A DNA stretch of 62,225 nucleotides, taken from NCBI RefSeq assembly GCF_008087345.1, contig NZ_ML701736.1:544386-606610 (forward strand), given 5' to 3'. The stretch is from Nocardioides caldifontis (GTDB taxonomy: Bacteria > Actinomycetota > Actinomycetes > Propionibacteriales > Nocardioidaceae). The position numbers and the translations under genes were made by a program. Below are positions 95 to 16,864 of the stretch, piece by piece. The notes under the pieces are model-generated. The model did no database searches. It was not told the DNA's origin and saw nothing but the letters and a program-made list of their open reading frames with translations. How positions within the stretch are numbered: position 1 is the first letter of the stretch; each line of letters opens with the position of its first letter.

Positions 95-1087
95 TCAGCC
101 GAGCCAGGCCTCGACCTTGTCGGGGTTGTCCTCGACCCACTTGGCCGCCGCGTCCTCGGGGCTCATCCCGTCGGCGGTGATGTACGCCGCGATCTGGTTC
201 TGGTCCTCGTTCGACAGCGTCCACTTCTCGACCAGCGAGGCGGCCGGCGACCCGGAGTCCATGAACTCCTTGGACGCGACCTTCTTCAGCTCGGTCTCGG
301 CGTAGTCGCAGTCGACCTCGGCCTTGTTCTTGTCGCAGCCCTCCTCGTAGGGCGGCAGCTCGACCCGGGCGAACGGGATCTCCGCGTGGATGTAGTGCGG
401 CTCCCAGAAGTAGCCGAGCAGCCACTCCTTGTTCTTCTGCGCCTTCTCGAAGGCCTCGACCGTCGCGGTCTCACCGCCGGAGAAGACCACCTTGAAGTTC
501 AGCCCCAGGTTCTTGATGATCGCCTCGTCGTACTGGGTGTAGGTCGGGTCGGAGCCGAGGAACTGCCCCTGGTTGCCCGACTCCGAGGTGCGGAACTCGT
601 CGGCGAAGTCGTTGAGGTTCTCCCAGTTGAGGACCTCCGGGTGCTCCTCGGCGAGCCAGCCGGGGACGTACCAGCCGATGATGCCGACCGCGCCCATCGA
701 GCCGAGGTCGACGGCGGTGCCGTCGGCGACGGCCGCCTCGAGCTCGGCCTGGTGCGACCACTCCTCCAGGATGACGTCGCCGTCGCCGGAGGCGAGCGCC
801 TGGTACGACGGCCCGCCTTCCTTCAGCTCGACGTAGTTCACGGTGCAGCCGAGCTCCTCCTCGGCCACGTGGCCCACCACGTAGGCGTCGGCGGTGTAGC
901 CCACCCACGGGTGGACGAGGATGTTGAACTCGCCGCAGTCACCGCCGGCGGCGGCCGCCTGCTCCTCGTTGGCCTCGGTCTGCTCGGACACAGAGCCCCC
1001 GCCGCACGCCGTCAACGCCAGCAAGGCCGCCGCCGCGAGAGCGGACAGCCCCGCGCGTCGCTTGATCGGATCCAGCATTGTCTTCAC
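95..1087 (-). CDS. opuAC/proX: Glycine betaine ABC transporter, substrate-binding lipoprotein
   Basis: The 330-residue product binds a quaternary ammonium osmolyte, most likely glycine betaine, outside the membrane and delivers it to the adjacent permease. It begins with a charged n-region and a hydrophobic segment ending in the lipobox LTAC, with the acylated Cys at residue 28. The mature part has the OpuAC/ProX fold signature, starting with HPWVGYTADAYVV, which in this family holds ligand-contacting aromatic residues. It is the last gene of a minus-strand operon after betB, betA, the ATPase and the permease, separated from the permease by 78 bp. Choline or another betaine cannot be excluded as ligand. 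Confidence 0.93.
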   Translation of the reverse strand: MKTMLDPIKRRAGLSALAAAALLALTACGGGSVSEQTEANEEQAAAAGGDCGEFNILVHPWVGYTADAYVVGHVAEEELGCTVNYVELKEGGPSYQALASGDGDVILEEWSHQAELEAAVADGTAVDLGSMGAVGIIGWYVPGWLAEEHPEVLNWENLNDFADEFRTSESGNQGQFLGSDPTYTQYDEAIIKNLGLNFKVVFSGGETATVEAFEKAQKNKEWLLGYFWEPHYIHAEIPFARVELPPYEEGCDKNKAEVDCDYAETELKKVASKEFMDSGSPAASLVEKWTLSNEDQNQIAAYITADGMSPEDAAAKWVEDNPDKVEAWLG

Positions 1088-1165: not shown

Positions 1166-3142
1166 TCACCTGCCCGGTCCCGCGCGGTCCGCTGCCGCAC
1201 GCATGACCCGGTCGATGAGGATGCCGAGGAGGACGATCGAGAAGCCGGCGGCGGCGCCCTTGCCGGCGTAGTCGGCGTGCGCCAGCGCGTACACCACGTC
1301 GTAGCCCAGGGCGCCGGCACCGACCAGCCCGCCGATGACCACCATCGCGAGCACGTAGAGCAGCCCCTGGTTGGTCGCCAGCACCAGCGAGCCCTTGGCC
1401 ATCGGCAGCTGGACCTTGGTGATCTCCTGCCAGGTCGTCGACCCGGTGGAGCGTCCGGCCTCGACGACCGTCTCGCCGACGCCGCGCACGCCGTCGGCGA
1501 CGAGCTTGATGGCGGCCGGGGCGGCGTAGATGATGCCGGCCACGATCGCGGTGAACCGGGTCGGCCCGAAGAGCGCGAGCACCGGGATCAGGTAGACGAA
1601 GGCGGGGATCGTCTGCCCCGCGTCGAGCGTCGGCCGGACGATCAGGTCGACCCGGCGGCTCCTCGCCATCCAGACGCCGAACACCAGGGCGAGGACCATG
1701 ACGAGCGCCGTCGCGACGATCGTCATGTTGAGCACGACCATCGTGTCGTTCCACAGGTCGAGCAGGTAGATCCCGGTGAGGCCGACGACCGCGGGCACCA
1801 GCGCGCGGAGCCCGCCGACGACCAGGCTCAGTGCGAGCAGCCCGGCGTAGGCGAGCCACCACGGCGACTCGGCGAGCAGCGACTGCAGCGGGTTCAGCAG
1901 CCCGTACGTCACCGCGTCCTTGAACGCACCGGACGGACCGTCCAGCGCCGAGGTGATCGACTCCATCCAGTCGTTGGCCCGGGAGGCGACCGAGCTGGCG
2001 AGGTCGTTGCTCGGAAACACCGCAGCGTCGATGGCGTAGCGGGAGTACCAGACCGCGACCGCCACCGGGACGAGCAGCGACCCGAGGACGATGCGGCGGC
2101 GCCGCGGGTCCTCCCCGCCGCCCCGCGCCACCCGCTCGGACCGCTCGCTGGCGGCCGTCGTGGTGCGGTCGAGCATGATCCCCATGACGACGATCAGGAG
2201 ACCGGGGACCAGGCCGGCGCCGAAATTGTTTTGGGTCAGGGCCGAGAGCACCGGCTTGCCGAGGCCCGGGCCGTTGACGTAGCCGGCGATGATCGCGATC
2301 GACAGCGCGGCGAGGATCGTCTGGTTCAGCCCGAGGATGATCGTCCGGCGGGCCATCGGGACCTGCACCTTCCACAGCCGCTGCCAGGTCGTCTGGCCCA
2401 ACGAGTCGGTGGCCTCGATCGCCGCCGGCGACACGTCCCTGATGCCGAAGCCGGCGATGCGCACGATCGGCGGCAGCGCGTAGGCAACCGTGCAGACCAC
2501 GGCGTTGGGCGCCCCGATGCCGAACAGGATGAAGACGAACATCAGGTAGACGAAGGTCGGCATCGTCTGCAGCAGGTCGAGGACCGGCGTCACGATGCGG
2601 CTCGCGGTCCGGCTCAGCCCGATCGCGATCGCCACCGGGAACCCGATGAGCACCGCGAAGAACACCGACACGAGCGTCACGATCAGCAGGTCCATCGAGT
2701 CTTCCCAGAACCCGAAGAGCCCGAAGGAGACGAAGGACGCCGCGACGAGCAGCGCGATGCGCCAGCTCGCCACCGCGTAGCCGACCCACGTCGCGATCGC
2801 CACGACGCCCAACCAGCCGATCTGCGGGGCGGGACGCGGCGCCTCCGGCGTGGAGATCAGCCCCTGCAGGGTCTCGACGATCGCGTTGATCCCGTCGGCG
2901 ATCACCCCGGTGATCGCGCTGCCGCCCAGGCCGTCGGCGATGTCGGTGATGCGCTCGTGCAGGTCGGTCTGCTCGGTGCCGGAGACGAACAGCGTGTCGT
3001 CGCCGCGCGTGAAGCTCCACACCAGGATCCAGAGCCCGAGCACCACCAGCGCCCATACCCAGCGGGGGACGCGACGCGGCTCGGGAGGGGGCGGGGGCGC
3101 CGCACCGGGTTCGACCGGGCGGGCCACCGTGGCGGTGGCCAT
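1166..3142 (-). CDS. opuAB/proW: Betaine ABC transporter permease with two fused permease domains
   Basis: This is the membrane channel of the betaine importer. At 658 residues it is roughly twice the usual ProW/OpuAB length and contains two BPD-type permease domains in one chain. The first lies around residues 110-310 and the second around 420-640, and each has its own coupling-helix region (TTWQRLWKVQVPMAR and TTWQEITKVQLPMAK). The protein can therefore supply both halves of the pore. A proline-rich N-terminus precedes the first membrane segment. The start codon shares a base with the stop of the ATPase gene, so the two are translationally coupled. Confidence 0.92.
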   Translation of the reverse strand: MATATVARPVEPGAAPPPPPEPRRVPRWVWALVVLGLWILVWSFTRGDDTLFVSGTEQTDLHERITDIADGLGGSAITGVIADGINAIVETLQGLISTPEAPRPAPQIGWLGVVAIATWVGYAVASWRIALLVAASFVSFGLFGFWEDSMDLLIVTLVSVFFAVLIGFPVAIAIGLSRTASRIVTPVLDLLQTMPTFVYLMFVFILFGIGAPNAVVCTVAYALPPIVRIAGFGIRDVSPAAIEATDSLGQTTWQRLWKVQVPMARRTIILGLNQTILAALSIAIIAGYVNGPGLGKPVLSALTQNNFGAGLVPGLLIVVMGIMLDRTTTAASERSERVARGGGEDPRRRRIVLGSLLVPVAVAVWYSRYAIDAAVFPSNDLASSVASRANDWMESITSALDGPSGAFKDAVTYGLLNPLQSLLAESPWWLAYAGLLALSLVVGGLRALVPAVVGLTGIYLLDLWNDTMVVLNMTIVATALVMVLALVFGVWMARSRRVDLIVRPTLDAGQTIPAFVYLIPVLALFGPTRFTAIVAGIIYAAPAAIKLVADGVRGVGETVVEAGRSTGSTTWQEITKVQLPMAKGSLVLATNQGLLYVLAMVVIGGLVGAGALGYDVVYALAHADYAGKGAAAGFSIVLLGILIDRVMRAAADRAGPGR

Positions 3143-4215
3143 CAGCGTTCTTCCGCCACGACGACGCGCAGGATGTCGTCGTCGTCGACCATCCCGACCA
3201 CGCGGTCGCCCTCGGCGACGAGCACGGGGCCGTTGTGGTCGAGCACGACCCGGGCGGCCTCGCGGACGACCGTGTCGCAGGGCAGGACGGGCGTGTCGGG
3301 GGCGACCTGGTCGTCGACCGGCCGCATCACCCAGCGCAGCGTGAGCACGTGGGACTTCGGCACGTCGCTGACGAACTCGCGCACGTAGTCGTCGGCGGGC
3401 CTGGCGACCACCTCGTCGGGGCGGCCCACCTGCACGATCTGTCCGTCGCGCATGATCAGGATCCGGTCGCCGAGCTTCAGCGCCTCCTGCAGGTCGTGGG
3501 TGATGAAGACCATCGTCTTGCCGAGCTCGCGGTGGAGCCGCACGACCTCGTTCTGCATGTCCCGCCGGATCAGCGGGTCGAGCGCGGAGAACGGCTCGTC
3601 GAAGAGGAGCAGCTCCGGGTCGTTGGCGAGGGCCCGGGCGAGCCCGACGCGCTGCTGCATGCCGCCGGAGAGCTGGTCGGGGTAGGACTGGTCGTAGCCG
3701 CTGAGCCCCACCAGCTCGATCATCCGCATCGCCCGCTCGCGGCGGGCGGCCTTCTTCTCGCCGCGGATCTCCAGCCCGTAGGACACGTTGTCGACGACCT
3801 TGCGGTGCGGCAGCAGCCCGAAGTGCTGGAAGACCATCGAGACGTGCTTGCGGCGCAGCTCGCGCAGCCGGCTGTCCGGGGCCTTGGTGATGTCCTGCCC
3901 GCCGATCTCCACGGTGCCCGCCGTCGGCTCGATCAGCCGGGTCAGCATCCGCACGAGCGTCGACTTCCCCGAGCCCGAGAGCCCCATGACGACGAAGACC
4001 TCGCCGGGCGCCACGTCGAAGGAGACGTCCTTCACGCCGACCACGCAGCCGGTCTTCCTCTTCAGCTCCGCGCGGCTGAGCTCGGCGTCGGGAGTGCCGA
4101 TGATCCGCTCCGCGCGCGGGCCGAAGATCTTCCAGAGCCCTTGCACGGACAGGGCCGGGTCCCCCGCGACCCTCTCGGTGGCGACAGGGGTGGTGGGCGG
4201 GACGGTCTGGGTCAT
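3142..4215 (-). CDS. opuAA/proV: Betaine ABC transporter ATP-binding protein with C-terminal CBS domain
   Basis: This is the 357-residue ATPase of the importer. Walker A is GLSGSGKST at residues 78-86, the ABC signature is LSGGMQQR near residue 185, and Walker B with the D-loop is [13 protein letters not shown]. The insert before Walker A (around residues 30-60) is typical of the ProV/OpuAA class, which couples to quaternary amine permeases. The last ~65 residues form a CBS-like domain; in the OpuA family CBS domains sense ionic strength or cyclic dinucleotides, so direct osmotic gating is plausible. It starts inside the betA stop (4-bp overlap). Confidence 0.94.
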
Positions 4216-5903
4216 GGCGAGACTCCGGAGGGCGGCTCCAGCGGCATGCCGTCGCGGTGGCGGTAGTACGGCACGTCGAGCGGAGGCAGTGGCGTGTTCC
4301 CGAGGATCAGGTCGGCCGACTTCTCGGCCAGCATCATCACCGGGGCGTAGATGTTGCCGTTCGTGATGTAGGGCATCGCGGAGGCGTCGACGACCCGCAG
4401 CCCCTCGACGCCGTGCACCCGCATCGACTCCGGGTCGAGCACCGCCTGGTCGTCGACGCCCATCTTGGCGGTGCAGGAGGGGTGGAGGGCCGTCTCGGCG
4501 TCCTTGGCGACCCAGTCGAGGATCTCCTCGTCGGTCTCGACGCTCGGCCCCGGCGAGAGCTCACCGGCATTGAAGACGTCGAACGCCGGCTGGTTGAGGA
4601 TGTGGCGCGCGGCGCGCACCATCTCGATCCACTCGCGACGGTCGTTCTCGGTCGAGAGGTAGTTGAACTGCAGGGCCGGGTGCTGGCGCGGGTCGCGGCT
4701 CTTGAGCCGGAGCGTCCCCCGGACGTCGGAGTACATCGGGCCGATGTGCACCTGGTAGCCGTGGTCGGACGCCGGCCGCGACCCGTCGTACCGGATCGCG
4801 ATCGGGAGGAAGTGGAACATGAGGTTCGGGTAGTCGACCTCGTCGTTGGAGCGGATGAAGCCGCCGGCCTCGAAGTGGTTGCTCGCCCCCACCCCGCGGC
4901 GCAGGAAGAGCCACTCGGCACCGATCCGCGGCTTGTGCCGGTGCTTGAGCCACGGCCCGATGGAGACCGGCTGCTTGCTGGCGTACTGGATGTAGACCTC
5001 GAGGTGGTCCTGGAGGTTGCTGCCGACACCGGGCAGGTCGGCGACGACGGGGATGCCGAGCTGCTCGAGGTGCTCCTTCGGTCCGATCCCGGCGAGGAGC
5101 AGCAGCTGGGGGGAGCCGATCGCGCCGCCGCAGAGGATGACCTCGCCGGCCCGGACGCGGCGGGCGCCGCGGCCTGCCCGGTGGTAGTCGACGCCGGTGA
5201 CGCGGTTGCCTTCGGTGACCAGCCCGGTGACCGTCGCCAGGGTCTCGACGCGGAGGTTCTTCCGGTGCCGCACCGGGTGGAGGTACGCGCGGGCCGCGCT
5301 GAGCCGACGCCCCTTGTGCACGTTGCGGTCGAACGGCGCGAACCCCTCCTGGCGGTAGCCGTTGACGTCGTTGGTCAGGGGGTAGCCGGCCTGCTGGACG
5401 GCCTCGAAGAAGGCCCCGAACAGCGGGCTCGTCGCGGGGCCGCGCTCGAGCACCAGCGGCCCGCTACCCCCGCGCCAGGCGTCGGCGCCGGCGAGGCAGG
5501 TCTCCATCCGCTTGAAGTAGGGCAGGCAGTGGGCGTAGTCCCACGACTCCATGCCCTTGTCGGCGGCCCACCGCTCGTAGTCCATCGGGTTGCCCCGCTG
5601 GAAGATCATCCCGTTGATGCTGCTGCTGCCGCCGAGCACCTTGCCGCGGGCGTGGTAGACGCGGCGGCCGCCCATGTAGGGCTCGGGCTCCGACTCGTAC
5701 TTCCAGTCGTAGAGGCGGTTGCCGATCGGGTAGGGCAGCGCGGCCGGCATGTGGATGAACGGGTCGAGCCTGACGTCCGAGCGCCCCGCCTCGAGCACCA
5801 GGACGCTCGTGGAGGGATCGGCGCTCAGCCGGTTCGCCAGCGCACAGCCGGCGCTGCCGCCCCCCACGATCACGAAGTCATAGCTGCGCCCGCTGTCGAC
5901 CAT
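4212..5903 (-). CDS. betA: Choline dehydrogenase, GMC oxidoreductase family
   Basis: The 563-residue flavoenzyme should oxidise choline to betaine aldehyde. The FAD-binding motif [13 protein letters not shown] begins at residue 14, a GMC signature ([14 protein letters not shown]) follows near residue 85, and the C-terminus has the catalytic HPSCTAKMG and the [13 protein letters not shown] segment. The frame stays open well upstream, but ATG at 5903 gives the normal BetA N-terminus and only a 13-bp gap to betB. betB lies upstream and the betaine importer downstream in the same operon, which supports choline over the many other GMC substrates. Confidence 0.92.
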
Positions 5904-5916
5904 CCGCCCGCCTCCC

Positions 5917-7386
5917 TCAGCCCCGGAACCACTGCTGCACCGCCGGGCGCACGTTGTGCCAGACGTGCTTGGTCTCGCGGTACTCGTCGAGCCCGGCGAG
6001 GCCGAGCTCGCGCCCGATCCCCGACTGCTTGTAGCCGCCCCACTCGGCCTGCGGCACGTAGGGGTGGAAGTCGTTGATCCACACGGTGCCCATCCGCAGC
6101 CGCCCGGCGACCCGCTCGGCGCGGCCGGCGTCCCTCGTCCACACCGCGCCGGCGAGGCCGTAGATGCTGTCGTTGGCGGTCTCGACGGCCTGGTCCTCGC
6201 CGGTGAACCCCTCGACGGTGAGCACCGGCCCGAACGACTCGTCGTGCACCACCGACATCGAGGTGTCACACCGGTCGAGCACCGTCGGCGGGTAGTAGAA
6301 CCCGTCGGCCAGCCGCGGGTCGTCGGGGCGCCGGCCACCGCAGCGCAGCTCCGCGCCTTCCTCGAGCCCGAGCGCGACGTACTTCTCGACCTTGTCGCGG
6401 TGGGCGGCGGAGATGAGCGGGCCGGTCTCGGCCTCCTCGTCGAAGGGGCCGCCGAGCCGGATGCGGGAGGCGCGCGCGACCAGCTCGTCGACGAACTCCG
6501 TGCGCACGCTCTCCTCGATGACCAGCCGCGCACCGGCCGAGCAGACCTGGCCGGAGTGCAGGAAGACGGCGGTCAGCGCGAAGTCGAGGGCGACCTCGAG
6601 GTCGGCGTCGGCGAAGACGACGTTGGGGTTCTTGCCGCCGAGCTCGAGCGCGATCTTCTTCACCGTGCTGCTCGCCGCGGCCATGATCCGCTTGCCGGTC
6701 TCGAGGCCGCCGGTGAACGACACCAGGTCGACGCGCGGGTCCTCGGACAGCGGCGCACCCGCCTGGGCCCCGGCCCCGAGCACCAGGTTGCCGACGCCGG
6801 CGGGGAGCCCGGCCTCCTCGAGGATCCGCATCAGGTGGATGGCGGTGTGCGGGGTCAGCTCGCTGGGCTTCAGCACGAAGGTGTTGCCGGCGGCGAGCGC
6901 GGGCGCCACCTTCCACGAGGTCTGCAGCAGCGGGTAGTTCCACGGCGTGATCAGCGCGCAGACGCCGACGGGCTCGTGGACGACCCGGCTCACCACGTCG
7001 GGGCGGCCGGTGTCGACGACCCGCCCGGTGTCCTCGGCGGCGATGTTGCCGTAGTGCCGGAAGACGCCGACCACGTCGTCGACGTCGTACTCGCTCTCGA
7101 CGAACCGCTTCCCGGTGTCCAGGCTTTCTGCCCGGGCGACGTCGGCCTTGTCGCGCTCGAGCAGGTCGGCGACGCGGTGCAGCAGCCGGCCGCGCTCCAG
7201 CGTCGAGCTCGACGACCAGGTGCCGGCGTCGAACGCCTCGCGCGCGGCCGCGATGGCCCGGGCGGTGTCCTCGGGCCCGGCCTCGTCGACCTCTCCCACG
7301 AACGACCCGTCGGCCGGGCACAGGATGGTCCGTGAGCCGCCCTCGCGAGCGGAGATCCACTCCCCCTTCACGTACAACGTGGGCAC
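5917..7386 (-). CDS. betB: Betaine aldehyde dehydrogenase
   Basis: This NAD(P)-dependent aldehyde dehydrogenase oxidises betaine aldehyde to glycine betaine. It has the catalytic Glu in ELGGKNP, the catalytic Cys in [10 protein letters not shown] and the usual cofactor-fold elements. I chose GTG at 7386 because AGGAG lies five bases upstream and the resulting 489 residues match the family length. Earlier in-frame GTG (7398) and TTG (7422) starts would put the coding sequence into the GTTGCGCAAC operator. It is the first enzyme gene of the choline/betaine operon, 156 bp downstream of the IclR gene on the same strand. Confidence 0.92.
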
Positions 7387-7406
7387 GGGGCTCCTCACGT
7401 CAGGGC

Positions 7407-7442
7407 GTTGCGCAACGCGCAACGACGTTTGCCTGACGCAAC
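7407..7442. promoter_or_regulatory. Putative IclR operator upstream of betB
   Basis: A perfect 10-bp palindrome GTTGCGCAAC sits at 7407-7416, followed by a further GCGCAACG and then the word TGACGCAAC at 7434-7442. The same TGACGCAAC occurs at the iclR start (8331-8339) and at the metF start (16864-16872). Its position just upstream of the preferred betB start suits a repressor or activator site. That the adjacent IclR protein binds it is inference. Confidence 0.55.
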
Positions 7443-7542
7443 AGCATTGTGGGGCGGAGCCGTCGGGTCAAGGACCGTTACGCCCTCGTTGTGAATGCGT
7501 TCGCTGCCCGCGGGTACCGTCGCCGGCTCTCGGCCGTCCGCG

Positions 7543-8331
7543 CTAGCCGCCGACAGCGGCCTGGCGGTGCCACCCGAGCCGGTGGGAGACCTCGTCCGCG
7601 GCGTCGACCAGCACGGGGACCAGCTCCTCGACCCGGCGCTCCGGAAGCCGCAGGGTGGGCCCTGAGATGCTCATCGACGCGACGACGTCGCCGTGCGCGC
7701 TGCGCAACGGCGCCGCGATCGCGGTCAGCCCGAGCTCCAGCTCGTCGGTGGCGACGGCGAACCCCTGCGCCCGCACGGTGGCGAGCTGGCGGTGGAGCGT
7801 CCGCCGCGCCGTGATCGTGTGCTCGGTGTACGCCGGCAGCGTCTCGACCAACCGGTCGACCTCGTCCGCCTCGAGCTCGCAGAGGAGCACCTTGCCGTTG
7901 GAGGTGGCGTGCAGCGGGATGTGCTGGCCGACCCAGTTGTGGGACTGCAGCCCCGAGCCGCCGGTGACCTGGTCGACGTAGAGCGCCGCATGGTCGGCCA
8001 GCACCGCGATGTTCACCGTCTCGCCGCACTCGGCCGCGAGCCGCCGGCACACCGGCCGCGCCTCCTGCACCACGTCGAGCCGCGCGGTGCTGGCGCCGGC
8101 GAGCCGGACCAGCCCCATGCCGAGGCGGTACTTCCCGCGGTCCTCGGTCTGCTGCACGAGCTCGTGGCCCTCGAGGGTGGTCACCAGCCGGAAGGCCGTG
8201 CTCTTGTGCACGCCGAGCTCCGCGGCGATCTCGGTGACGCCGGCCTCGCCGACCCGCGCGAGGATGGACAGCACCGTCAGCGCCCGGTCCACCGACTGCA
8301 CGCCGCCGACCGCCTCGGTGGTGTTCCCCAT
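7543..8331 (-). CDS. IclR family transcriptional regulator (betaine/C1 locus)
   Basis: This 262-residue regulator has an N-terminal winged helix-turn-helix (GVTEIAAELGVHKSTAFRL) and a C-terminal IclR effector domain with the typical MSISGPTLRL segment near the end. It lies between the bet operon downstream on the same strand and purU, which is divergent. The ATG is directly preceded by GTTGCGTC, part of the suspected operator, so autoregulation is likely. The effector may be choline, betaine or a breakdown product; the sequence does not say which. Confidence 0.88.
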   Translation of the reverse strand: MGNTTEAVGGVQSVDRALTVLSILARVGEAGVTEIAAELGVHKSTAFRLVTTLEGHELVQQTEDRGKYRLGMGLVRLAGASTARLDVVQEARPVCRRLAAECGETVNIAVLADHAALYVDQVTGGSGLQSHNWVGQHIPLHATSNGKVLLCELEADEVDRLVETLPAYTEHTITARRTLHRQLATVRAQGFAVATDELELGLTAIAAPLRSAHGDVVASMSISGPTLRLPERRVEELVPVLVDAADEVSHRLGWHRQAAVGG

Positions 8332-8390
8332 GACGCAACGCTAGCGTGTGGGCGTTGCGCATGACAGGCCCACGAGGCGCCACACGCAAC
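8331..8390. promoter_or_regulatory. Divergent iclR/purU operator with 8-bp inverted repeat
   Basis: Between the divergent iclR and purU genes there is a perfect inverted repeat, CGCAACGC at 8334-8341 and GCGTTGCG at 8352-8359, with the shared word TGACGCAAC starting at 8331. A third half-site, CGCAAC, lies at 8385-8390 just before the purU ribosome-binding site. The arrangement resembles a dimer-binding site controlling both directions. It is probably the binding site of the adjacent IclR protein. Confidence 0.55.
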
Positions 8391-8408
8391 AGACGGAAGG
8401 AAGTTGCC

Positions 8409-9275
8409 TTGAACCGGACGCTGCCGCCGCACAGCTACGTGCTCACCATCATCTGCCCGGACCGGCCGGGCATCGTGCACGCGGTCAGCGGCTTCCTCGT
8501 CGAGCACGGCGGGAACATCCTCGAGTCCCAGCAGTTCGACGACCTCGACGAGGACCGCTTCTTCATGCGGGTGCAGTTCGTGGCCCCGCCCCCGGCGAGC
8601 CTCGAGGGGCTGCGCACCGCGTTCGCGGACCGGGCCGCGGAGTTCTCGATGACCTGGGAGCTGTGGGAGGCCGCCGCGCCGTACCGCACGCTGATCCTGG
8701 TCTCGAAGTTCTCCCACTGCCTCAACGACCTGCTCTTCCGGTGGCGCAACGGCGACCTCCAGATCGACGTCGCCGGCGTCGTCTCCAACCACATGGACTG
8801 CGCACCGCTCGCCGCGTCGTACGACGTCGACTTCCACCACCTCCCGGTGACCCCGGACACCAAGGCCGAGGCCGAGGCGGAGCTGCTCACCATGGTCGAC
8901 GAGCTCGACGTGGACCTCGTGGTGCTGGCCCGCTACATGCAGGTGCTCTCCGACGAGGCGTGCGACGCGCTCGCCGGCCGGGCGATCAACATCCACCACT
9001 CGTTCCTGCCGAGCTTCAAGGGCGCCAAGCCCTACCACCAGGCGTTCGAGCGGGGGGTGAAGCTCGTCGGCGCGACCGCGCACTACGTCACCGCCGACCT
9101 CGACGAGGGGCCGATCATCGAGCAGGACGTGGTGCGCGTCGACCACCGCTTCGACGCCGCCCAGCTGGTGTCGGCCGGCCGCGACGTCGAGGCACAGGTG
9201 CTCTCGCGGGCGGTCCGCTGGCACTCCGAGAGCCGGGTGCTCCTCAACGGCTCCCGCACCGTCGTCTTCCGCTGA
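8409..9275 (+). CDS. purU: Formyltetrahydrofolate deformylase
   Basis: The enzyme hydrolyses 10-formyl-THF to THF and formate in the cytoplasm. An N-terminal ACT domain (SYVLTIICPDRPGIVHAV, about residues 9-85) is followed by the formyltransferase-type catalytic domain with INIHHSFLPSFKG and LDEGPIIEQD. I chose TTG at 8409 because AAGGAAG lies five bases upstream and the resulting 288 residues match PurU; the longer frame from 8346 runs into the operator. In this neighbourhood it would drain one-carbon units from betaine methyl groups to formate and regenerate THF. Confidence 0.92.
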   Translation: MNRTLPPHSYVLTIICPDRPGIVHAVSGFLVEHGGNILESQQFDDLDEDRFFMRVQFVAPPPASLEGLRTAFADRAAEFSMTWELWEAAAPYRTLILVSKFSHCLNDLLFRWRNGDLQIDVAGVVSNHMDCAPLAASYDVDFHHLPVTPDTKAEAEAELLTMVDELDVDLVVLARYMQVLSDEACDALAGRAINIHHSFLPSFKGAKPYHQAFERGVKLVGATAHYVTADLDEGPIIEQDVVRVDHRFDAAQLVSAGRDVEAQVLSRAVRWHSESRVLLNGSRTVVFR

Positions 9276-9280
9276 CCGCC

Positions 9281-9342
9281 CCTCCCCCGCCGAGTCGTCG
9301 CATCTTCACGCGCCTCCCCCGCCGAGTCGTCGCATCTTCACG
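9281..9342 (+). repeat. Direct pair of 30-bp repeats, 32-bp period (left arm)
   Basis: Two identical 30-bp copies occupy 9281-9310 and 9313-9342, separated by 2 bp. The core is GAGTCGTCGCATCTTCACG, preceded by a C-rich CCTCCCCCGCC. The first copy starts 5 bp after the purU stop codon. The right arm at 9562-9616 carries the same repeat inverted, and a degenerate pair with the same 32-bp period lies beside the HNH relic at 47560-47619. Confidence 0.9.
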
Positions 9343-9561
9343 GACGAGCGCGCCGACGCAGGCGAGTCGAGCTCAGGGGAAGCTCGTCGGCCCGGTGGTC
9401 GGCAGGGGCGTCAGGCACGCCACGGCTGACGGCGACCGGCTCTGCGACTGGTGGCGCCGCTGGCAGACCCGCGGCGCCAGTCGTTTCACGACAGGGCCGA
9501 CCGCATCCAGGTCGTACGCCGGCGCGGCGGCTGACGACCTCGACCGCTCGGCGCGGTCGAC

Positions 9562-9616
9562 CGTGAAGATGCGACGACTCGGCGGGGGATACGCGTGAAG
9601 ATGCGACGACTCGGCG
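9562..9616 (-). repeat. Inverted pair of the same repeats, 32-bp period (right arm)
   Basis: Copies lie at 9562-9588 and 9594-9616 in inverse orientation to the pair at 9281-9342, with core CGTGAAGATGCGACGACTCG and the same 32-bp spacing. The outer copy ends one base before the stop codon of the convergent methyltransferase gene at 9617. The two arms could fold together into a long imperfect stem of ~55 bp with a ~220-nt loop. Confidence 0.9.
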
Positions 9617-11056
9617 TCAGTCGCCCAGCTCGGCCCTGCGCCGGACGACGTACTCCTCGAGCTCCTGGCGGACGGCGTCGTCGAGCGTCGGCTGCTCGTA
9701 CTCCTCGAGCCGCTGCTGGTAGATCTTCTTCGCCCGGCCGGCCGCGTCGACGCCGCCGTTGCGCATCCACCGCTCGTAGTTCTCCGACGAGGAGAGCATG
9801 GGCCGGTAGAAGCAGGTGCGGAACCGCTCCATCGTGTGCATCGCCCCGAGGAAGTGCCCGCCGTGGCCGACCTCCTGGTGGGCGTCGAAGGCCAACGACG
9901 CCTCGTCGATCTCGAGCGGGGTGAACTCCGCCTGGAGCATCTGCAGGATCTCGACGTCGACGATGAACTTCTCGAACCCCGCCACGAGGCCGCCCTCGAG
10001 CCACCCCGCGGAGTGCATGACCCAGTTCGCCCCGGCCAGGAAGGTCGGCAGCATCGTCATCAGCGCCTCGTAGCCGGCCTGCGCGTCGGGCACCTGCGAC
10101 GAGGTGAGCGCACCACCGGACCGGAAGGGCAGCCCGAAGTGCCGGGCAATCTGTCCGGTGCACAACAAGCCGAGCCCGGACTCGGGGGTGCCGAACGTCG
10201 GGGAGCCGGACTGCATGTCGATGTTCGACAGGAACGACCCGAAGATCACCGGGCACCCCGGCCGGATCAGCTGCGCCAGCGCGATGCCGGAGAGTGCCTC
10301 GGCGATCTGCTGCACCAACGCCGCCGGGATGGTGACCGGCGACATCGCGCCCATGAGCAGGAACGGGGTGAGCACGCACGGCTGGCCGGCCGCGGCGTAC
10401 TCGAACAGCGCGTCGAGCATCCGGTCGTCCCACCGCAGCGGCGAGTTGCAGTTGATCAGCGAGATCGAGACCGGCGTCTCCTCGATGGCGGCGCGGCCGC
10501 CGAAGAGGATCTCCCCCATGGCGATCGTGTCGCGGGCGTTCACCCCCGAGACGACGTTGCCCATGTAGACCTTGTCGGTCAGCGTCATGAGCGCCAGCGT
10601 CATGTCGAGGTGCCGCGAGTCGAGCGGGGTGTCGTTGGGCTCGCAGATCACGCCGCCGGCGGAGTCGAGCACGTCGAAGGACTGCGACAGCATCGTGAAC
10701 CGGCGGAAGTCGTCCATCGTCGCGTCGCGGCGCACCTCGCCCTCACGGACGAAGGGCGGCCCGTAGACCGAGCCGAACGCCATCGAGTCGCCGCCGATGT
10801 GGATGTTGTGGGCGGGGTTGCGGGCCTGGACGTCGAACTCGCGCGGCGCCTTGGCCACCTGCTCCAGCACGAAGTCGGGGTCGAGGAAGACGGTGTTCTC
10901 CTCGACCTTCTGCCCCGCCGACCGGAAGAGCTCGAGCGCCTTCTCGCTCATGAACTCCACGCCGATCTCGGTGACCAGGCGTCGCCACCCCTTGTCGAGC
11001 TGGGCCATCGCGTCGGCGGAGAGGACCTCGTAGCGCGGCATCGTGTTGCGGAACAT
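9617..11056 (-). CDS. mtgB: MttB-family corrinoid-dependent methyltransferase, probably for glycine betaine
   Basis: This 479-residue member of the trimethylamine methyltransferase (MttB/COG5598) superfamily would transfer a methyl group from a quaternary amine to the cobalt of the corrinoid protein encoded nearby. The frame is uninterrupted and contains no in-frame amber codon, so it belongs to the non-pyrrolysine branch. That branch includes glycine betaine, proline betaine and carnitine methyltransferases. The ATG at 11056 has AAGGAGG five to six bases upstream. With bet genes and a betaine importer on one side and corrinoid, methyl-THF and activator genes on the other, glycine betaine is the best substrate guess. 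Dimethylglycine would be the product. Confidence 0.85.
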   Translation of the reverse strand: MFRNTMPRYEVLSADAMAQLDKGWRRLVTEIGVEFMSEKALELFRSAGQKVEENTVFLDPDFVLEQVAKAPREFDVQARNPAHNIHIGGDSMAFGSVYGPPFVREGEVRRDATMDDFRRFTMLSQSFDVLDSAGGVICEPNDTPLDSRHLDMTLALMTLTDKVYMGNVVSGVNARDTIAMGEILFGGRAAIEETPVSISLINCNSPLRWDDRMLDALFEYAAAGQPCVLTPFLLMGAMSPVTIPAALVQQIAEALSGIALAQLIRPGCPVIFGSFLSNIDMQSGSPTFGTPESGLGLLCTGQIARHFGLPFRSGGALTSSQVPDAQAGYEALMTMLPTFLAGANWVMHSAGWLEGGLVAGFEKFIVDVEILQMLQAEFTPLEIDEASLAFDAHQEVGHGGHFLGAMHTMERFRTCFYRPMLSSSENYERWMRNGGVDAAGRAKKIYQQRLEEYEQPTLDDAVRQELEEYVVRRRAELGD

Positions 11057-11097
11057 CTTGCGCCTCCTTGACCGGGGTTCTGCGGCATCCTAGCCTC

Positions 11098-11125
11098 ATC
11101 ATGTGGGAGTCAGGTTCCACATCAT
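11098..11125. promoter_or_regulatory. Putative IclR operator between mtgB and the second iclR gene
   Basis: An imperfect palindrome has arms ATCATGTGG (11098-11106) and CCACATCAT (11117-11125), matching at eight of nine positions around a 10-bp centre. It lies in the short intergenic space between divergent mtgB and iclR genes and ends on the ATG of the latter. Binding here would block both directions. It differs from the GTTGCG operators of the other IclR locus, so the two regulators probably read different sites. Confidence 0.5.
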
Positions 11126-11938
11126 GGAAGACACGCCAGCACCCAGCAACACCTCGAGGAGCTTCGTGGCACAGAACCTCAAGACGGCAGTCCCCGGGAC
11201 CCAAGCGGTCGACCGGGCGTGCGCGCTGCTGTCGATGGTCGTGCTCGCCGACGAGCCCCTGACGTTCACCGAGATCAGCGAGGCCAGCGGGCTCGCGCGG
11301 TCGACGACGTCGCGGCTGCTCGCCGCGCTCGAGCGCACCGACCTGCTCCGTCGCGACGCCGAGGGGGCCTACCTCGCCGGCTCGCTCTTCGCGCTCCACG
11401 CCGCCCGCCACGACCGCTGGCAGGAGGTCGCGCGCGTCGCGATGCCCTACCTGGAGCGGCTGCGGGACGAGACCGGCGAGACCGCCCACCTCGGCGGCGC
11501 CCAGGGCGGCACCGTCCTCCACGTCGCCCAGGTCGACTCTCACTACCTGCTCGGCACGCGGGACTGGACCGACACGCACGTCCCGGACCACACCAGCGCG
11601 CTGGGCAAGGTGTTGCTGGCGTTCGGCCGGCTGCGGATGCCGGAGCGGCCGCTGGAGCAGTTCACCGAGCACACCGTCACCGACCTGCGCCGCATCGAGC
11701 GCCAGCTCGTCGAGACCCGCACGCGCGGCTACGCCGTGGCGGTCGACGAGCTCGAGGTGGGGCTGGCCGCGGTCGCCGCCCCGGTCACCGGGCGCGACGG
11801 CGAGGTCTTCGCCGCGCTCGGTGTCTCCGGGCCGACCGCCCGCCTCGAGGACCGGCTCGACACCGTCGGGCGACTTCTGATCGAGCAGGCCGACGACCTG
11901 TCGGGGCTGCTGCGTGGCTTGCACAAGGAGGGAGCGGC

Positions 11939-11942
<4 letters not shown>
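11124..11942 (+). CDS. IclR family transcriptional regulator of the corrinoid methyltransferase cluster
   Basis: This regulator of about 272 residues has an N-terminal winged helix-turn-helix (LTFTEISEASGLARSTTSRL) and an IclR effector domain. A GTG at 11103 would extend it by seven residues, but ATG 11124 begins just after the palindromic operator and is preferred. It is divergent from mtgB and its stop overlaps the start of the corrinoid protein gene by 4 bp. It is therefore both the first gene of the mtg operon and its likely regulator. The effector is unknown; betaine is an obvious candidate. Confidence 0.86.
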
Positions 11943-12600
<658 letters not shown>

Positions 12601-12604
<4 letters not shown>

Positions 12605-13476
12605 CCGAGAAGCACGAGACCGTCCTCCGCTCCGCGAGCAAGGAGGTGGTGATCGGCCACGGGCGCCGGTTCTGCCTCATCGGCGAGCGGATCAACCCGA
12701 CGGGCCGCCGGATCTTCCAGGAGCAGCTCCGCAACGGCGACATGTCTGCGATCGAGCGTGACGTGCGCGCCCAGGTCGAGGGCGGCGCCGACGTCCTCGA
12801 CGTCAACATGGGGGTGCCGCTGACCGACGAGCCCGACCTGCTGGCCAAGGCGATCCGGATGGTGCAGGGGCTCACCGACCTGCCGATCTGCATCGACTCC
12901 TCGGTGGTCGAGGCGCTGGAGGCCGGGCTCCAGGCCTACGAGGGGCGCGCGCTGGTCAACTCGGTCACCGCCGAGGACGACCGGATGGAGCTGATCCTCC
13001 CGCTGGTCAAGAAGTACGACGCCGCGATCATCGCGCTGCCGAACGACGCCGACGAGATCCCGATGGAGGCCGACCGCCGCCTCGAGCTCGTGCAGCACGT
13101 CGTCGACGTGGCGACCGGGGAGTACGGCATCGCCAAGGGCGACATCGTCATCGACCCGCTCGCGATGCCGATCGGTGCGGACACGACGACCGCGCTCACG
13201 GCGTTCGAGACCATGCGGCGGATCCGTGACGAGCACGGGCTGAACATGACCTGCGGCGCGTCCAACGTCTCCTTCGGGATGCCCGACCGGCACTCCCTGG
13301 GGGCGGCGTTCCTGCCCATGGCGATGCAGGCCGGGCTGACCAGCGCGATCATGGACGTCCGCACGCCCCAGATCGTCACGGCGGTGAAGGCCGCGGACCT
13401 CCTGCTCGGCCACGACGAGTGGGGCGGCAGCTGGATCACGGCCCACCGCGCACGTCAGGCAGCCGTGGCGGGGTGA
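12601..13476 (+). CDS. mtgA: Methyl-THF:corrinoid methyltransferase, pterin-binding
   Basis: The 291-residue TIM-barrel protein of the DHPS/AcsE-like pterin-binding family would move the methyl group from methyl-Co(III) corrinoid to tetrahydrofolate. Family marks are GERINPTGRR near residue 29, DVLDVNMG for the folate pocket, and the conserved CGASNVSFGMP segment shared with methyl-THF:corrinoid enzymes. It starts inside the stop of mtgC (4-bp overlap) and ends inside the start of the activator gene. The order C-A-activator is what a complete corrinoid methyl transfer system needs. Confidence 0.92.
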
Positions 13477-15395
13477 CCGTGAGCGAGTCGGCGGCGGCCG
13501 TGCCGGACCCCCCGGGGCGCGGGGCGGCCCCGCTCTCCCCGGAGCCCTCCGCCGCCCACGACGGCACCGGTCGGGTGCGGCTGTCGTTCGCGCCGTCGGG
13601 CCGCGAGGTGAAGGTGCCTCCCGGCGTGACGGTGTTCGACGCGGCCAGCTGGAACGGCATCGCGATCGACTCGACCTGCGGCGGGCACGGCACCTGCAAG
13701 AAGTGCAAGGTGCAGGTCGTCGACGGCACGGTCCCGGTCTCCCGCCTCGACGTGCGCGCGTTCACGCCCGAGCAGCTACGCAACGGCTGGCGGCTGGCCT
13801 GCCTCGCGCAGGCGACCGCCGACCTCGCGGTCGACGTGCCCCCGCTCACCACCCGACCGAAGGCCGCGACCGTCGGCGTCGGGCGGCAGGTGATCCTGCG
13901 GCCTGCGGTCAAGAAGCGCTACGTCGAGCTCGACGAGGCGACGCTGTCGGACCAGCGCCCCGACCTCGACCGGCTGCTCGACGCGATGGACGACCTCGAG
14001 CTCACCGCCGACCTCTACGCCCTGCAGCGGTTGCCGAAGGTGCTGCGGGAGGCCGACTTCAAGGTCACCGCGGTCGTCGTGGACGACGCACTGGTCGACG
14101 TCGAGCCGGGCGACACCACAGGGCGTCAGCTGGCGCTCGCCTACGACCTCGGCACGACCACCGTCGTCGCCACGCTCCTCGACGTCACCACCGGCACGCC
14201 GGTCGCGGTGGCGTCCATGCTCAACAAGCAGCAGCCGTTCGGCGGCGACGTGATCAGCCGGATCAGCGCGACGATGCTCGACCCCGACGCGCTCCCCCGG
14301 CTCCGCGACCTCGCCCAGGAGACGCTCCGCGAGCTGGCCCGCGAGGTGTGCGACGAGGCGGGCGTGCCCCCGACCGAGGTCCACGAGGTGGCGCTCGCCG
14401 GCAACGCGACGATGGCCGCGCTGGCGCTGGGCATCGACCCCGAGCCGCTCGGCGTGGCGCCGTTCGTGATGTCCACGGCCACCGTGCCGACGCTGCTCGC
14501 CGCCGACCTCGGCCTCGCCCTGCACCCGCGGGCGCGGGCGTTCGTCCTCCCGGCCCTCGGCGCCTACGTCGGCGGCGACATCGTCGCCGGGATGCTCGCG
14601 ACCGGGATGGACCGCGACAAGCGGGTCCGGCTCTTCATCGACGTCGGCACCAACTGCGAGATCGTCCTCAGCGACGGCGAGACGATCCTGGCCACCGCGG
14701 CCCCCGCCGGGCCGGCCTTCGAGGGCGGCGCGATCCGCTGCGGCATGCGGGCCGCCGACGGCGCGATCGAGGTCGTGAAGCTCGGCGACGACGTCGAGCT
14801 CCAGGTGATCGGCGACAAGGAGCCGCAGGGGCTCTGCGGCTCGGGGCTCGTCGACGCGGTCGCCGAGCTGTGCCGGGTCGGGCTGCTCGACGGCTCGGGG
14901 CGCTTCGTCCCCGACGACCGGGCCGCGGAGCTCGTGCCCAGCCTCGCCGACCGGCTCACCGCCATCGGGCAGGAGCGGGTCTTCGTGCTCCACCGACCGC
15001 ACCCGGAGGCGCCCCCGGAGGAGTCGGTCTACCTCTCGCAGCGGGACGTCCGCGAGCTGCAGTTCGCCAAGGCCGCGATCTCGACGGGGTGGACGCTGCT
15101 CCTCGAGCAGCTCGGCCTCGAGCACGGCGACGTGCAGCAGGTCCTGCTCGCCGGGTCCTTCGGGAGCTACCTCTCCCCCGCGGCCGCCGTACGCATCGGG
15201 CTGGTGCCGAAGCTGCCCGTGCTCCGCATCGTCTCGGCCGGCAACGTCGCCGGCGAGGGGGCGAAGATGAGCCTGCTCAGCGTGCAGGAGCGCGCCGGCG
15301 CCCTCGCCCTGCTGGAGGAGGTGAGCTATGTCGAGCTCTCCGACCGTGCCGACTTCAACGACCGCTTCGTCGAGCTCCTCGCCTTCCCGGGCTGA
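13473..15395 (+). CDS. RACo-type reductive activator of corrinoid proteins (DUF4445)
   Basis: The 640-residue ATP- and iron-sulfur-dependent protein should reduce inactive Co(II) corrinoid back to Co(I). A disordered ~30-residue N-terminus precedes a 2Fe-2S ferredoxin domain with Cys69, Cys75 and Cys78 (STCGGHGTCKKC) and a further Cys in LACLAQ. A linker and a C-terminal ASKHA ATPase domain follow, starting at LAYDLGTTTVVATLLD, with FIDVGTNCEI and LLAGSFGSYL. GTG at 13473 gives a 4-bp overlap with mtgA; GTG 13479 is also possible. Repeated adventitious oxidation of cobalt in an aerobe would make this protein essential to the cluster. Confidence 0.92.
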   Translation: MTVSESAAAVPDPPGRGAAPLSPEPSAAHDGTGRVRLSFAPSGREVKVPPGVTVFDAASWNGIAIDSTCGGHGTCKKCKVQVVDGTVPVSRLDVRAFTPEQLRNGWRLACLAQATADLAVDVPPLTTRPKAATVGVGRQVILRPAVKKRYVELDEATLSDQRPDLDRLLDAMDDLELTADLYALQRLPKVLREADFKVTAVVVDDALVDVEPGDTTGRQLALAYDLGTTTVVATLLDVTTGTPVAVASMLNKQQPFGGDVISRISATMLDPDALPRLRDLAQETLRELAREVCDEAGVPPTEVHEVALAGNATMAALALGIDPEPLGVAPFVMSTATVPTLLAADLGLALHPRARAFVLPALGAYVGGDIVAGMLATGMDRDKRVRLFIDVGTNCEIVLSDGETILATAAPAGPAFEGGAIRCGMRAADGAIEVVKLGDDVELQVIGDKEPQGLCGSGLVDAVAELCRVGLLDGSGRFVPDDRAAELVPSLADRLTAIGQERVFVLHRPHPEAPPEESVYLSQRDVRELQFAKAAISTGWTLLLEQLGLEHGDVQQVLLAGSFGSYLSPAAAVRIGLVPKLPVLRIVSAGNVAGEGAKMSLLSVQERAGALALLEEVSYVELSDRADFNDRFVELLAFPG

Positions 15396-16017
15396 GCAGG
15401 CGGCCTCCCGCGTCGCGCTGGTCGCCTGCGGCGCGATCGCCCAGCCGTGCGCGGAGGTCGCGGCACGGCGTGGCTGGCCGCTCGACGTGCACCCGCTGCC
15501 GCCCCTGCTCCACAACCGTCCTGGGCTGATCGCGGAGCGGGTCGAGGAGCTGGCCGACGAGCTCGAGGAGCGCTACGCGGCGGTCGCGGTCGGGTACGCC
15601 GACTGCGGCACGTACGGCGCCCTCGACGCGCTCTGCACCCGGCGCGGGTGGAGCCGGCTGACCGGGCTCCACTGCTACGACCTGTACGCCGGCGCCGAGC
15701 GGATGCGGGAGCTCCTGGACCAGGAGCCCGGCACCTACGTGCTCACCGACTTCCTGGTGAGGTCGTTCGACCGCACCGTCGTCGCCGAGCTCGGCCTCGA
15801 CCGCCACCCCGAGCTGCGCGACGACTACTTCGCGCACTACCGCCGCGTGGTCTGGCTCGCCCAGCACCCCGACGCCGAGCTGCGGGCGCTCGCCGAGCGC
15901 GCGGCGGAGCGGATCGGGCTGCCGCTCGAGGTGGTCGACACCGGTCAGACGCTGCTCGAGGAGGCCGTCGAGCAGCTCCTGCGCGATGCCGCAGCCACCG
16001 GTGTCGTCACTGGGTGA
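15328..16017 (+). CDS. DUF1638 domain protein of the corrinoid cluster
   Basis: The 229-residue DUF1638 protein has no established enzymatic role. It is Cys-containing (VACGAIAQPC, GYADCGTYGALD, LHCYDLY), so a metal or cofactor role is possible. The start at 15328 lies 68 bp inside the activator gene but has a strong GGAGGAGG-type ribosome-binding site, and no later ATG/GTG/TTG precedes the conserved core. The first ~25 residues are Ser/Thr-rich and look dispensable. Tight coupling to the activator suggests a role in corrinoid handling or folate chemistry. Its end overlaps the convergent metF by 11 bp. Confidence 0.8.
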   Translation: MSSSPTVPTSTTASSSSSPSRAEQAASRVALVACGAIAQPCAEVAARRGWPLDVHPLPPLLHNRPGLIAERVEELADELEERYAAVAVGYADCGTYGALDALCTRRGWSRLTGLHCYDLYAGAERMRELLDQEPGTYVLTDFLVRSFDRTVVAELGLDRHPELRDDYFAHYRRVVWLAQHPDAELRALAERAAERIGLPLEVVDTGQTLLEEAVEQLLRDAAATGVVTG

Positions 16018-16864
16018 CGGGCGCCAGCCGCTCCTGGAACTCCCGGCACCACCGCTCGGTCTCAGCGATCTGGTTGAAGGTGTACAGGTGCAGCCCGGTC
16101 ACGTTCGACTCGGGCCGGGCCATCGTCTTCGCGCACCGCTCGAGGAACTGCTCCCCGGTGTAACCGCCAGGCGCCGCGAGCCTGGCGAACATCTTCTTGT
16201 GCTTCATGAGGAAACGCGTCGAGTCTCCCACACCGATGCGCGTGGCCATCGCGAGCAGCTTGGCGCGCTCCACCGGGCCGGGAGCACCGACGAGCACCGG
16301 CAGGGTGATGCCGCGGCTGCGCATCCGGTTCAGCCAGGTCTGGATGGTGCCCGGGTCGAAGTTGAGGTTGCTGACGATGTGCGTGGCGTGGCGCCGCTTG
16401 TCCCACATCGACTGCACGGTCAGGTCGTCGCTGATCGTGGGGTGCGACTCGGGGTAGCCGGTGATCCCGACCTCTGGGAAGGGGCGCCCGAGCTCGGTGA
16501 GGTCCTCGAGCAGGTCGAGAGCCGCGTGGTACTTCCCCGCGGGCGGGTCCTGGTCACCGCCCGGGACGAAGACGGTCGTCACGTCGGCCGCCAGCAGCCG
16601 GTCGCAGAGCTCGCTGAGCTCGGCGCGGTCGCGCACCATCCGCGCCGCGAGGTGCGGGACGACGTCGTACCCCTGGCGGGAGAGCCGCTCGGTGAGCTCG
16701 ACGGTGGTCTCGAGTCCCTTCGCCGGGGACGCCGTGACCGTGACGGTGCGCCGCAGCGGGACGTGCTCGAGCACCTTCTCCTCGACGCTCGGCGTCGGCA
16801 GCACCTCGAACCGCGCCGAGGCGACGAGCCGGCTCAGGACGGCCGCGTGGGCTTTGTTTCGCAT
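16007..16864 (-). CDS. metF: Methylenetetrahydrofolate reductase, divergent actinobacterial type
   Basis: This 285-residue TIM-barrel MTHFR-family protein interconverts 5-methyl-THF and 5,10-methylene-THF. FVPGGDQDPPAGKYHAALDLL and VGITGYPESHP match the family barrel. It resembles the shorter divergent actinobacterial branch more than E. coli MetF. Normally MetF runs in the reducing direction to supply methionine synthesis. Beside a system loading betaine methyl groups onto THF it could instead run as an oxidase of methyl-THF. Its ATG is directly preceded by GTTGCGTC, exactly as at the first iclR gene, which suggests joint control. Confidence 0.82.
   Translation of the reverse strand: MRNKAHAAVLSRLVASARFEVLPTPSVEEKVLEHVPLRRTVTVTASPAKGLETTVELTERLSRQGYDVVPHLAARMVRDRAELSELCDRLLAADVTTVFVPGGDQDPPAGKYHAALDLLEDLTELGRPFPEVGITGYPESHPTISDDLTVQSMWDKRRHATHIVSNLNFDPGTIQTWLNRMRSRGITLPVLVGAPGPVERAKLLAMATRIGVGDSTRFLMKHKKMFARLAAPGGYTGEQFLERCAKTMARPESNVTGLHLYTFNQIAETERWCREFQERLAPVTQ

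What the first reader, a model, noticed from the sequence alone, without database searches (positions are those of the whole stretch)
5917..16864. Choline to formate: complete corrinoid-dependent betaine demethylation locus in an apparent aerobe
The sequence shows betB, betA, a betaine importer, an MttB-family methyltransferase without an amber codon, a corrinoid protein, a methyl-THF:corrinoid methyltransferase, a RACo-type activator, metF and purU, all within 17 kb. From established knowledge, non-pyrrolysine MttB proteins demethylate glycine betaine, proline betaine or carnitine in anaerobes, and RACo proteins restore Co(I). The inference is that betaine methyl groups are loaded on THF and oxidised via MetF (reverse direction) to formyl-THF, then to formate by PurU. 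The low-potential Co(I) chemistry is expected in anaerobes, while the neighbours (choline dehydrogenase, acyl-CoA dehydrogenases) suggest aerobic life.
Basis: partly seen in the sequence, partly recalled or inferred. Interest (0 to 1): 0.72.

Follow-up and report, generated by a model that had tools for sequence, protein, structure and literature searches.

The report
B12-dependent betaine demethylation in actinobacteria
An actinobacterium and its relatives carry one gene cluster that probably takes up choline and glycine betaine, strips a methyl group off betaine with a vitamin-B12 protein and oxidises it; the same chemistry was recently shown in aerobic marine bacteria, so this looks like a new branch of a known pathway rather than a new kind of system.

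Summary
Missed were a DUF1638 gene after RACo, two IclR regulators, and, off the window's left edge, a dimethylglycine-oxidase-like gene and two ETF genes. The nearest relatives are Nocardioidaceae; the genome has a haem-copper oxidase. One search found 328 encoding stretches and kept 80 loci. Of 62 with enough left flank, 62 keep corrinoid protein, methyl-THF transferase and RACo, 61 DUF1638; of 62 with enough right flank, 59 keep a bet, importer or dimethylglycine gene. In 196 genomes of the family MttB (63), DUF1638 (64) and RACo (64) co-occur with one exception. Best reading: corrinoid-dependent glycine-betaine:THF demethylation, then methyl oxidation by a divergent MetF. The aerobic 'paradox' is in print: Ruegeria MtgBCD + RamA + DUF1638 + MetF2 (PMC12478193); CmuAB-MetF2-PurU in Methylobacterium (PMC3621897). 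New here: an actinobacterial clade, a consolidated locus, and canonical MetH retained in 16 of 16 genomes examined, so it need not serve methionine synthesis. Substrate and direction are inferred.

The parts
95..1087 (-). substrate-binding protein of a betaine-type ABC importer (OpuAC)
   Evidence: PF04069 130 bits
1166..3142 (-). permease of the importer, 658 aa with two permease stretches (ProW-like)
   Evidence: PF00528, two stretches
3142..4215 (-). importer ATPase (ProV-like)
   Evidence: PF00005 127 bits; at 60% identity or more in 49 of 62 right-flanked relatives
4212..5903 (-). choline dehydrogenase betA
   Evidence: TIGR01810 831 bits, cut-off 732
5917..7422 (-). betaine-aldehyde dehydrogenase-like betB
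   Evidence: best model TIGR01804 627 bits, below its cut-off 669
7543..8331 (-). IclR-family regulator 1
   Evidence: best models BhcR, KdgR, IclR, all below cut-off; kept in 58 of 62 right-flanked relatives
8346..9275 (+). formyl-THF deformylase purU (start uncertain)
   Evidence: TIGR00655 343 bits, cut-off 286; N215, H217, S219 in 52 of 52
9617..11056 (-). non-pyrrolysine MttB-family methyltransferase (MtgB-like)
   Evidence: PF06253 625 bits; pocket residues; tree
11103..11942 (+). IclR-family regulator 2, divergent from mttB, first gene of the core operon
   Evidence: PF01614, PF09339; overlaps the corrinoid gene by 4 bases
11939..12604 (+). corrinoid protein (MtgC-like)
   Evidence: PF02310 and PF02607; D, H and G of DxHxxG in 74 of 74; below the cut-offs of the two named MtgC models
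12601..13476 (+). methyl-THF:corrinoid methyltransferase (MtgD-like)
   Evidence: NF005719 316 bits, cut-off 259; closest PDB chain 2yck, 157 bits
13473..15395 (+). RACo-type reductive activator of corrinoid proteins
   Evidence: PF14574, PF17651, PF17650, PF00111; PDB 3zyy 332 bits; four ferredoxin-domain Cys in 67 of 67
15328..16017 (+). DUF1638 protein, presumed corrinoid-activation partner (start uncertain)
   Evidence: PF07796 81 bits; same genomes as RACo; C10, C69, C79, C92 invariant over 51 rows
16007..16864 (-). divergent MetF-like methyl/methylene-THF oxidoreductase
   Evidence: PF02219 38 bits; best PDB chain 7xg9 118 bits, other MTHFR chains 26 or less; E20 and D104 in 60 of 60

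Best explanation
A dedicated catabolic system for choline and glycine betaine. The ABC importer brings in betaine (and perhaps choline); BetA and BetB oxidise choline to glycine betaine. The MttB-family protein (MtgB) moves one methyl group from betaine to the Co(I) corrinoid of the small corrinoid protein (MtgC), releasing dimethylglycine. MtgD moves it on to tetrahydrofolate. The divergent MetF oxidises methyl-THF to methylene-THF; FolD (elsewhere in the genome) makes formyl-THF, which PurU or formyl-THF ligase turns into formate. Dimethylglycine is oxidised by the neighbouring dimethylglycine-oxidase-like flavoprotein, possibly with the adjacent ETF as acceptor. RACo, with DUF1638 as a presumed partner, re-reduces Co(II) corrinoid that oxygen or side reactions produce. 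Shown by sequence: the genes, their synteny, their co-occurrence. Inferred: substrate, reaction direction, DUF1638's role, regulation by the IclR proteins.
For: Gene content. Synteny over the 80 loci kept of 328 stretches: IclR, corrinoid, transferase, RACo and DUF1638 each in 61-62 of 62 left-flanked, MetF-like in 60; at least one of BetA, BetB, ProV or the dimethylglycine gene in 59 of 62 right-flanked. A GCV_T (dimethylglycine-type) frame within 25 kb of the MttB or MetF-like gene in 15 of 16 genomes. The own genome's copy matches dimethylglycine oxidase 1pj5 at 542 bits. MttB, DUF1638 and RACo in 63, 64 and 64 of the same 196 genomes, one exception. The residues proposed for DhMtgB (Y94, N199, R309, H345, from docking in PMC6855144, passages) are all kept in the window protein; TMA MttB has V, C, Y, Y. 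Precedent in aerobes: PMC12478193 and PMC3621897 (passages). COX1 in 16 of 16 genomes, which shows a capacity for aerobic respiration, not that it is obligate.
Against: BetA is missing in 14 and BetB in 13 of 62 right-flanked loci, and 3 (L021, L025, L081) have none of BetA, BetB, ProV or the dimethylglycine gene. A fifth DhMtgB aromatic, F353, is Gly here. R309 and H345 are also kept in 7 of 8 plasmid rows and all of N199, R309, H345 in 5 of 8, so they do not single out glycine betaine. MttB, MtgC, RACo, MetF-like and BetB fall below the named NCBIfam cut-offs. The tree, a quick one with long-branch warnings, does not place the window next to DhMtgB. No match over cut-off to the one formate-dehydrogenase model searched in the own genome. 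One genome (G015) has the MetF-like gene as its only PF02219 hit and no GCV_T frame near it, so there it may run in the reductive direction.
Confidence: 0.82

Rival explanations
1. The MttB protein acts on another carboxylated quaternary amine (proline betaine, carnitine, gamma-butyrobetaine) and the bet genes are incidental neighbours.
For: Apart from phosphocholine, PMC12155760 (passages) says the other known substrates are quaternary amines with a carboxyl group; the pocket residues would fit any of them; F353 is not kept; 3 of 62 right-flanked loci have no betaine context.
Against: BetA/BetB, an OpuAC-type importer and dimethylglycine oxidation genes recur beside it; of these amines only glycine betaine gives dimethylglycine (established knowledge).
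Confidence: 0.1
2. The core (MtgC, MtgD, with a homocysteine methyltransferase) serves mainly as a second, split methionine synthase, as in Phaeobacter and Ruegeria.
For: A betaine-homocysteine-methyltransferase-like gene (best model PRK07534, 296 bits, cut-off 338) is in the own genome, and a relative lies inside the locus in 9 of 62 left-flanked loci.
Against: Canonical MetH with its activation domain is present in 16 of 16 genomes, in pieces in G007; in G010 and G011 MetH is the only PF02574 match; the homocysteine gene is on another contig in the own genome.
Confidence: 0.05
3. Transport and bet genes serve osmoprotection only, and the corrinoid operon is an unrelated neighbour.
For: Osmolyte (N-acetylglutaminylglutamine amide) synthesis genes lie about 6 kb to the right of the MetF-like gene.
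Against: The two blocks stay together in most right-flanked relatives (BetB 49 of 62) and dimethylglycine and ETF genes follow the importer on the same strand in the own genome.
Confidence: 0.03

Closest known systems
MtgBCD of Ruegeria pomeroyi and relatives (PMC12478193), with RamA, DUF1638, MetF2
   Same: Same five module types (PF06253, PF02310, PF00809, RamA-like, DUF1638) plus a second MetF, in an aerobe, tied to choline and betaine catabolism.
   Different: bet genes, importer and dimethylglycine gene beside the core (the paper also reports co-located genes in other proteobacteria); canonical MetH retained in 16 of 16 genomes here, while the paper reports 108 of 156 marine MtgBCD genomes without it; IclR regulators. 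Paracoccus methylovorus, a named record fetched for comparison, has another MetF arrangement (two genes; best BLAST E 3.6) and 32-46% identity in the five shared modules. No Ruegeria MtgB sequence of the paper was compared.
MtgB/MtgC/MtgA of Desulfitobacterium hafniense
   Same: MtgB sequence family and four docked pocket residues.
   Different: Separate branch in the tree. THF transferase probably of a different family (inference): MtgA is said to lack sequence identity with known structures (PMC7154762, abstract start in listing), whereas the one here matches solved PF00809 enzymes.
CmuAB-MetF2-FolD-PurU chloromethane pathway, Methylobacterium CM4 (PMC3621897, passages)
   Same: Aerobic corrinoid methyl transfer to THF, a divergent MetF, PurU route to formate; metF2 and purU needed for growth on chloromethane.
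   Different: Substrate and first methyltransferase.
Split methionine synthase with RamA-like and DUF1638 proteins of Phaeobacter inhibens (PMC5764234, passages)
   Same: DUF1638 and the RamA-like (DUF4445) protein co-occur there as here.
   Different: There required for methionine synthesis; here MetH is present.

Membership tests
MttB superfamily (PF06253) | PF06253 over gathering score, nearly full length | tested here: met
   625 bits, cut-off 25, profile 25-500 of 500
Pyrrolysine trimethylamine methyltransferase | in-frame amber codon / pyrrolysine | tested here: not met
   no TAG in frame; Leu in the Pyl column; TIGR02369 284 of 525 bits
Glycine betaine methyltransferase MtgB | proposed pocket Y94, N199, R309, H345, F353 of DhMtgB | tested here: inconclusive
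   first four kept, F353 is Gly; the residues were proposed by docking; numbering set one lower than the 9yce chain so that all five DhMtgB letters agree
Glycine betaine methyltransferase MtgB | glycine-betaine:cob(I)alamin methyl transfer | not testable with these tools
   needs an enzyme assay
Aerobic MtgBCD system | MtgB, MtgC, MtgD, RamA-like and DUF1638 genes in one genome | tested here: met
   by Pfam family
Aerobic MtgBCD system | dual role in methionine synthesis (MtgE, usually no MetH) | tested here: inconclusive
   MtgE-like gene on another contig, but canonical MetH also present
RACo / corrinoid reductive activator | 2Fe-2S domain plus RACo linker, middle and C-terminal domains | tested here: met
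   Cys in 67 of 67; named model NF040756 not reached, 421 of 800 bits
NCBIfam MtgC (NF047996, NF047995) | curated score | tested here: not met
   200 of 370 and 158 of 310 bits
Methylenetetrahydrofolate reductase (PF02219) | gathering score; Glu of the catalytic region | tested here: met
   38 bits, cut-off 24; E20 in 60 of 60; TIGR00676 not met, 50 of 294 bits
Catabolic (methyl-THF oxidising) MTHFR | prefers methyl-THF oxidation | not testable with these tools
   only the resemblance to 7xg9; the subfamily is described in PMC13001107 (one passage)

The most novel reading that the evidence does not exclude
Nocardioides-like actinobacteria run a catabolic Co(I) methyltransferase uncoupled from methionine synthesis under air, kept working by an obligatory RACo + DUF1638 reactivation pair in which DUF1638 is a cysteine-based corrinoid or metal handling protein, and drained by a MetF specialised for methyl-THF oxidation.
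Probability: 0.4. Interest if true: 0.55.

Novelty: new member of a known kind. Interest (0 to 1): 0.38.

Why it matters
Choline and glycine betaine are abundant osmolytes. If right, the locus extends aerobic, B12-dependent betaine demethylation from the reported marine proteobacteria to a clade of Nocardioides-like actinobacteria, predicts a cobalamin need for betaine use in them, and gives a setting with MetH intact in which DUF1638 and RACo can be tested in air without a methionine phenotype in the way.

Full report
What is there. Gene finding by codon-position composition plus family scans gives, leftwards from the middle: purU (+), an IclR gene (-), betB-like, betA and a three-gene betaine-type importer (all -). 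In the middle is mttB (-), 46 bases from a divergent operon IclR - corrinoid protein - methyl-THF transferase - RACo - DUF1638 (+). The first four of these overlap by 4 bases each; the start of DUF1638 is uncertain (its first ATG lies 68 bases inside RACo). The MetF-like gene runs back towards them (-). betA, purU and the methyl-THF transferase pass curated NCBIfam cut-offs; betB, mttB, the corrinoid protein, RACo and the MetF-like protein match their families but fall under the named models, hence '-like'.

Beyond the window. The window lies at C3:544386-606610 of a 4.8 Mb genome with a single MttB. The importer strand continues off the left edge: an FAD/aminomethyltransferase protein, frame 901 aa (PF01266, PF16350, PF01571, PF08669; best PDB chain N,N-dimethylglycine oxidase 1pj5 at 542 bits against 280 for dimethylglycine dehydrogenase 5l46), then ETF beta and alpha genes. 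The adjacent ETF suggests, but does not show, a dehydrogenase rather than an oxidase. A second such protein sits beside FolD on contig C1. Canonical MetH (2123 bits), canonical MetF, FTHFS and a betaine-homocysteine-methyltransferase-like gene are elsewhere in the genome.

Conservation. One search found 328 encoding stretches and kept 80 loci at 81% identity or more, all actinobacterial by record title: mostly Nocardioides and other Nocardioidaceae, with Phycicoccus and other Intrasporangiaceae or Dermatophilaceae, Geodermatophilaceae and Jatrophihabitans. Presence was counted by tblastn with identity thresholds of 40-60% set per gene. In the 62 of 80 with 9.5 kb or more on the core side: corrinoid 62, transferase 62, RACo 62, DUF1638 61, IclR 61, MetF-like 60. 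In the 62 of 80 with 9.5 kb or more on the other side: IclR 58, PurU 49, BetB 49, ProV 49, BetA 48, ProW 43, ProX 25, dimethylglycine gene 23, ETF beta 7; 59 have at least one of BetA, BetB, ProV or the dimethylglycine gene and 3 (L021, L025, L081) have none. Loci reach at most 10 kb beyond MttB, so genes far out are undercounted. At genome scale a GCV_T frame lies 9-25 kb from the MttB or MetF-like gene in 15 of 16 genomes (13; G007 and G008 worked out by hand, about 16 and 11 kb; in G007 the frame is in pieces); the exception is G015.

Phylogenetic profile. In 196 genomes of the family (drawn evenly, 90% complete or more) MttB is in 63, DUF1638 in 64 and RACo in 64. Comparing the printed handle lists by eye, the 63 are in both other lists and the only extra genome is G116, an assembly of about 540 contigs. 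MttB is patchy: 13 of 22 genera. In 396 genomes of the phylum 51 have MttB; apart from the own genome, each listed positive is marked 'same phylum', that is, outside the own class.

Substrate. The four DhMtgB residues kept between the two biochemically tested MtgB enzymes in PMC6855144 (passages; assigned there by docking) are kept in the window protein and, for Y94 and H345, in 81 of 82 actinobacterial rows (N199 and R309 in 82 of 82). The exception is a second copy in L054 that groups with L116. TMA MttB has V, C, Y, Y. F353 is Gly, and a Trp stands at 349, as in the 4yyc chain. In the eight plasmid rows Y94 is kept in 3, N199 in 5, R309 and H345 in 7, so the last three speak for a carboxylated quaternary amine against TMA, not for glycine betaine alone; the gene neighbourhood carries that last step. 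The tree is a quick one of 99 rows with long-branch warnings: the actinobacterial rows of the main type form one group, DhMtgB lies outside.

Methyl oxidation. The MetF-like protein has 25% identity to the genome's canonical MetF and matches PDB chain 7xg9 at 118 bits, other MTHFR chains at 26 or less. Glu20 and Asp104, which I take for the catalytic Glu and the folate-side Asp (roles recalled; for the Glu see PMC11094777, passages), are in 60 of 60. MetF2 of the chloromethane pathway is similarly divergent, 25% to E. coli MetF, and was needed for growth (PMC3621897, passages). A methyl-THF-oxidising MTHFR subfamily is described in PMC13001107 (one passage). Against a strictly oxidative role: in G015 it is the only PF02219 match. 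Formate's fate is open: TIGR01591 is passed in 4 of 16 genomes, the own genome not among them; FTHFS is in 11 of 16, the own genome included, and close to the locus in G004, G007 and G013.

Relation to methionine synthesis. In Ruegeria the corrinoid and THF modules also make methionine, and 108 of 156 marine MtgBCD genomes lack MetH (PMC12478193). Here MetH with its activation domain is in 16 of 16 genomes, in pieces in G007, and in G010 and G011 MetH is the only PF02574 match. A relative of the own genome's PRK07534-like gene sits inside the cluster in 9 of 62 left-flanked loci; eight of these are placed in Intrasporangiaceae or Dermatophilaceae and the ninth is titled Micrococcales. So a dual role is possible in some lineages and not needed in others.

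DUF1638. Price and colleagues made no specific proposal (PMC5764234, passages). In this sample it occurs in exactly the genomes that have RACo. Fifty-one aligned members keep C10, C69, C79, H91 and C92 without exception. The predicted fold is a confident alpha/beta protein with only weak relatives in the PDB.

Verdict. A real, well-conserved catabolic locus, correctly read in outline. The chemistry in aerobes is already published, so it is a new, unusually complete, actinobacterial member of a known kind.

Noticed in passing
23248-25083 and 24702-26831 (+): N-acetylglutaminylglutamine amidotransferase (TIGR03104, 997 bits) and synthetase (TIGR03103, 820 bits): osmolyte dipeptide genes about 6 kb right of the MetF-like gene.
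   Followed up: no
L006, L009, L013, L016, L017, L027, L050, L051, L071: A homocysteine-methyltransferase (MtgE-like) gene sits inside the cluster near the MetF-like gene; in the window's genome its relative is on another contig (L094).
   Followed up: partly
L054 second copy and L116: A second MttB type, 57% identical to the window's in L116, with altered pocket residues (N94 and Q345): a candidate for another substrate.
   Followed up: no
L112, L113, L114, L115, L117: A further MttB paralogue group in five genomes of the family that joins Sinorhizobium, Leisingera and Phaeobacter plasmid copies in the tree, with Ala at position 94.
   Followed up: no
L096:4577-7060: A second dimethylglycine/sarcosine-type FAD-GCV_T protein, divergent from and next to FolD in the own genome; may do the sarcosine step.
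   Followed up: partly
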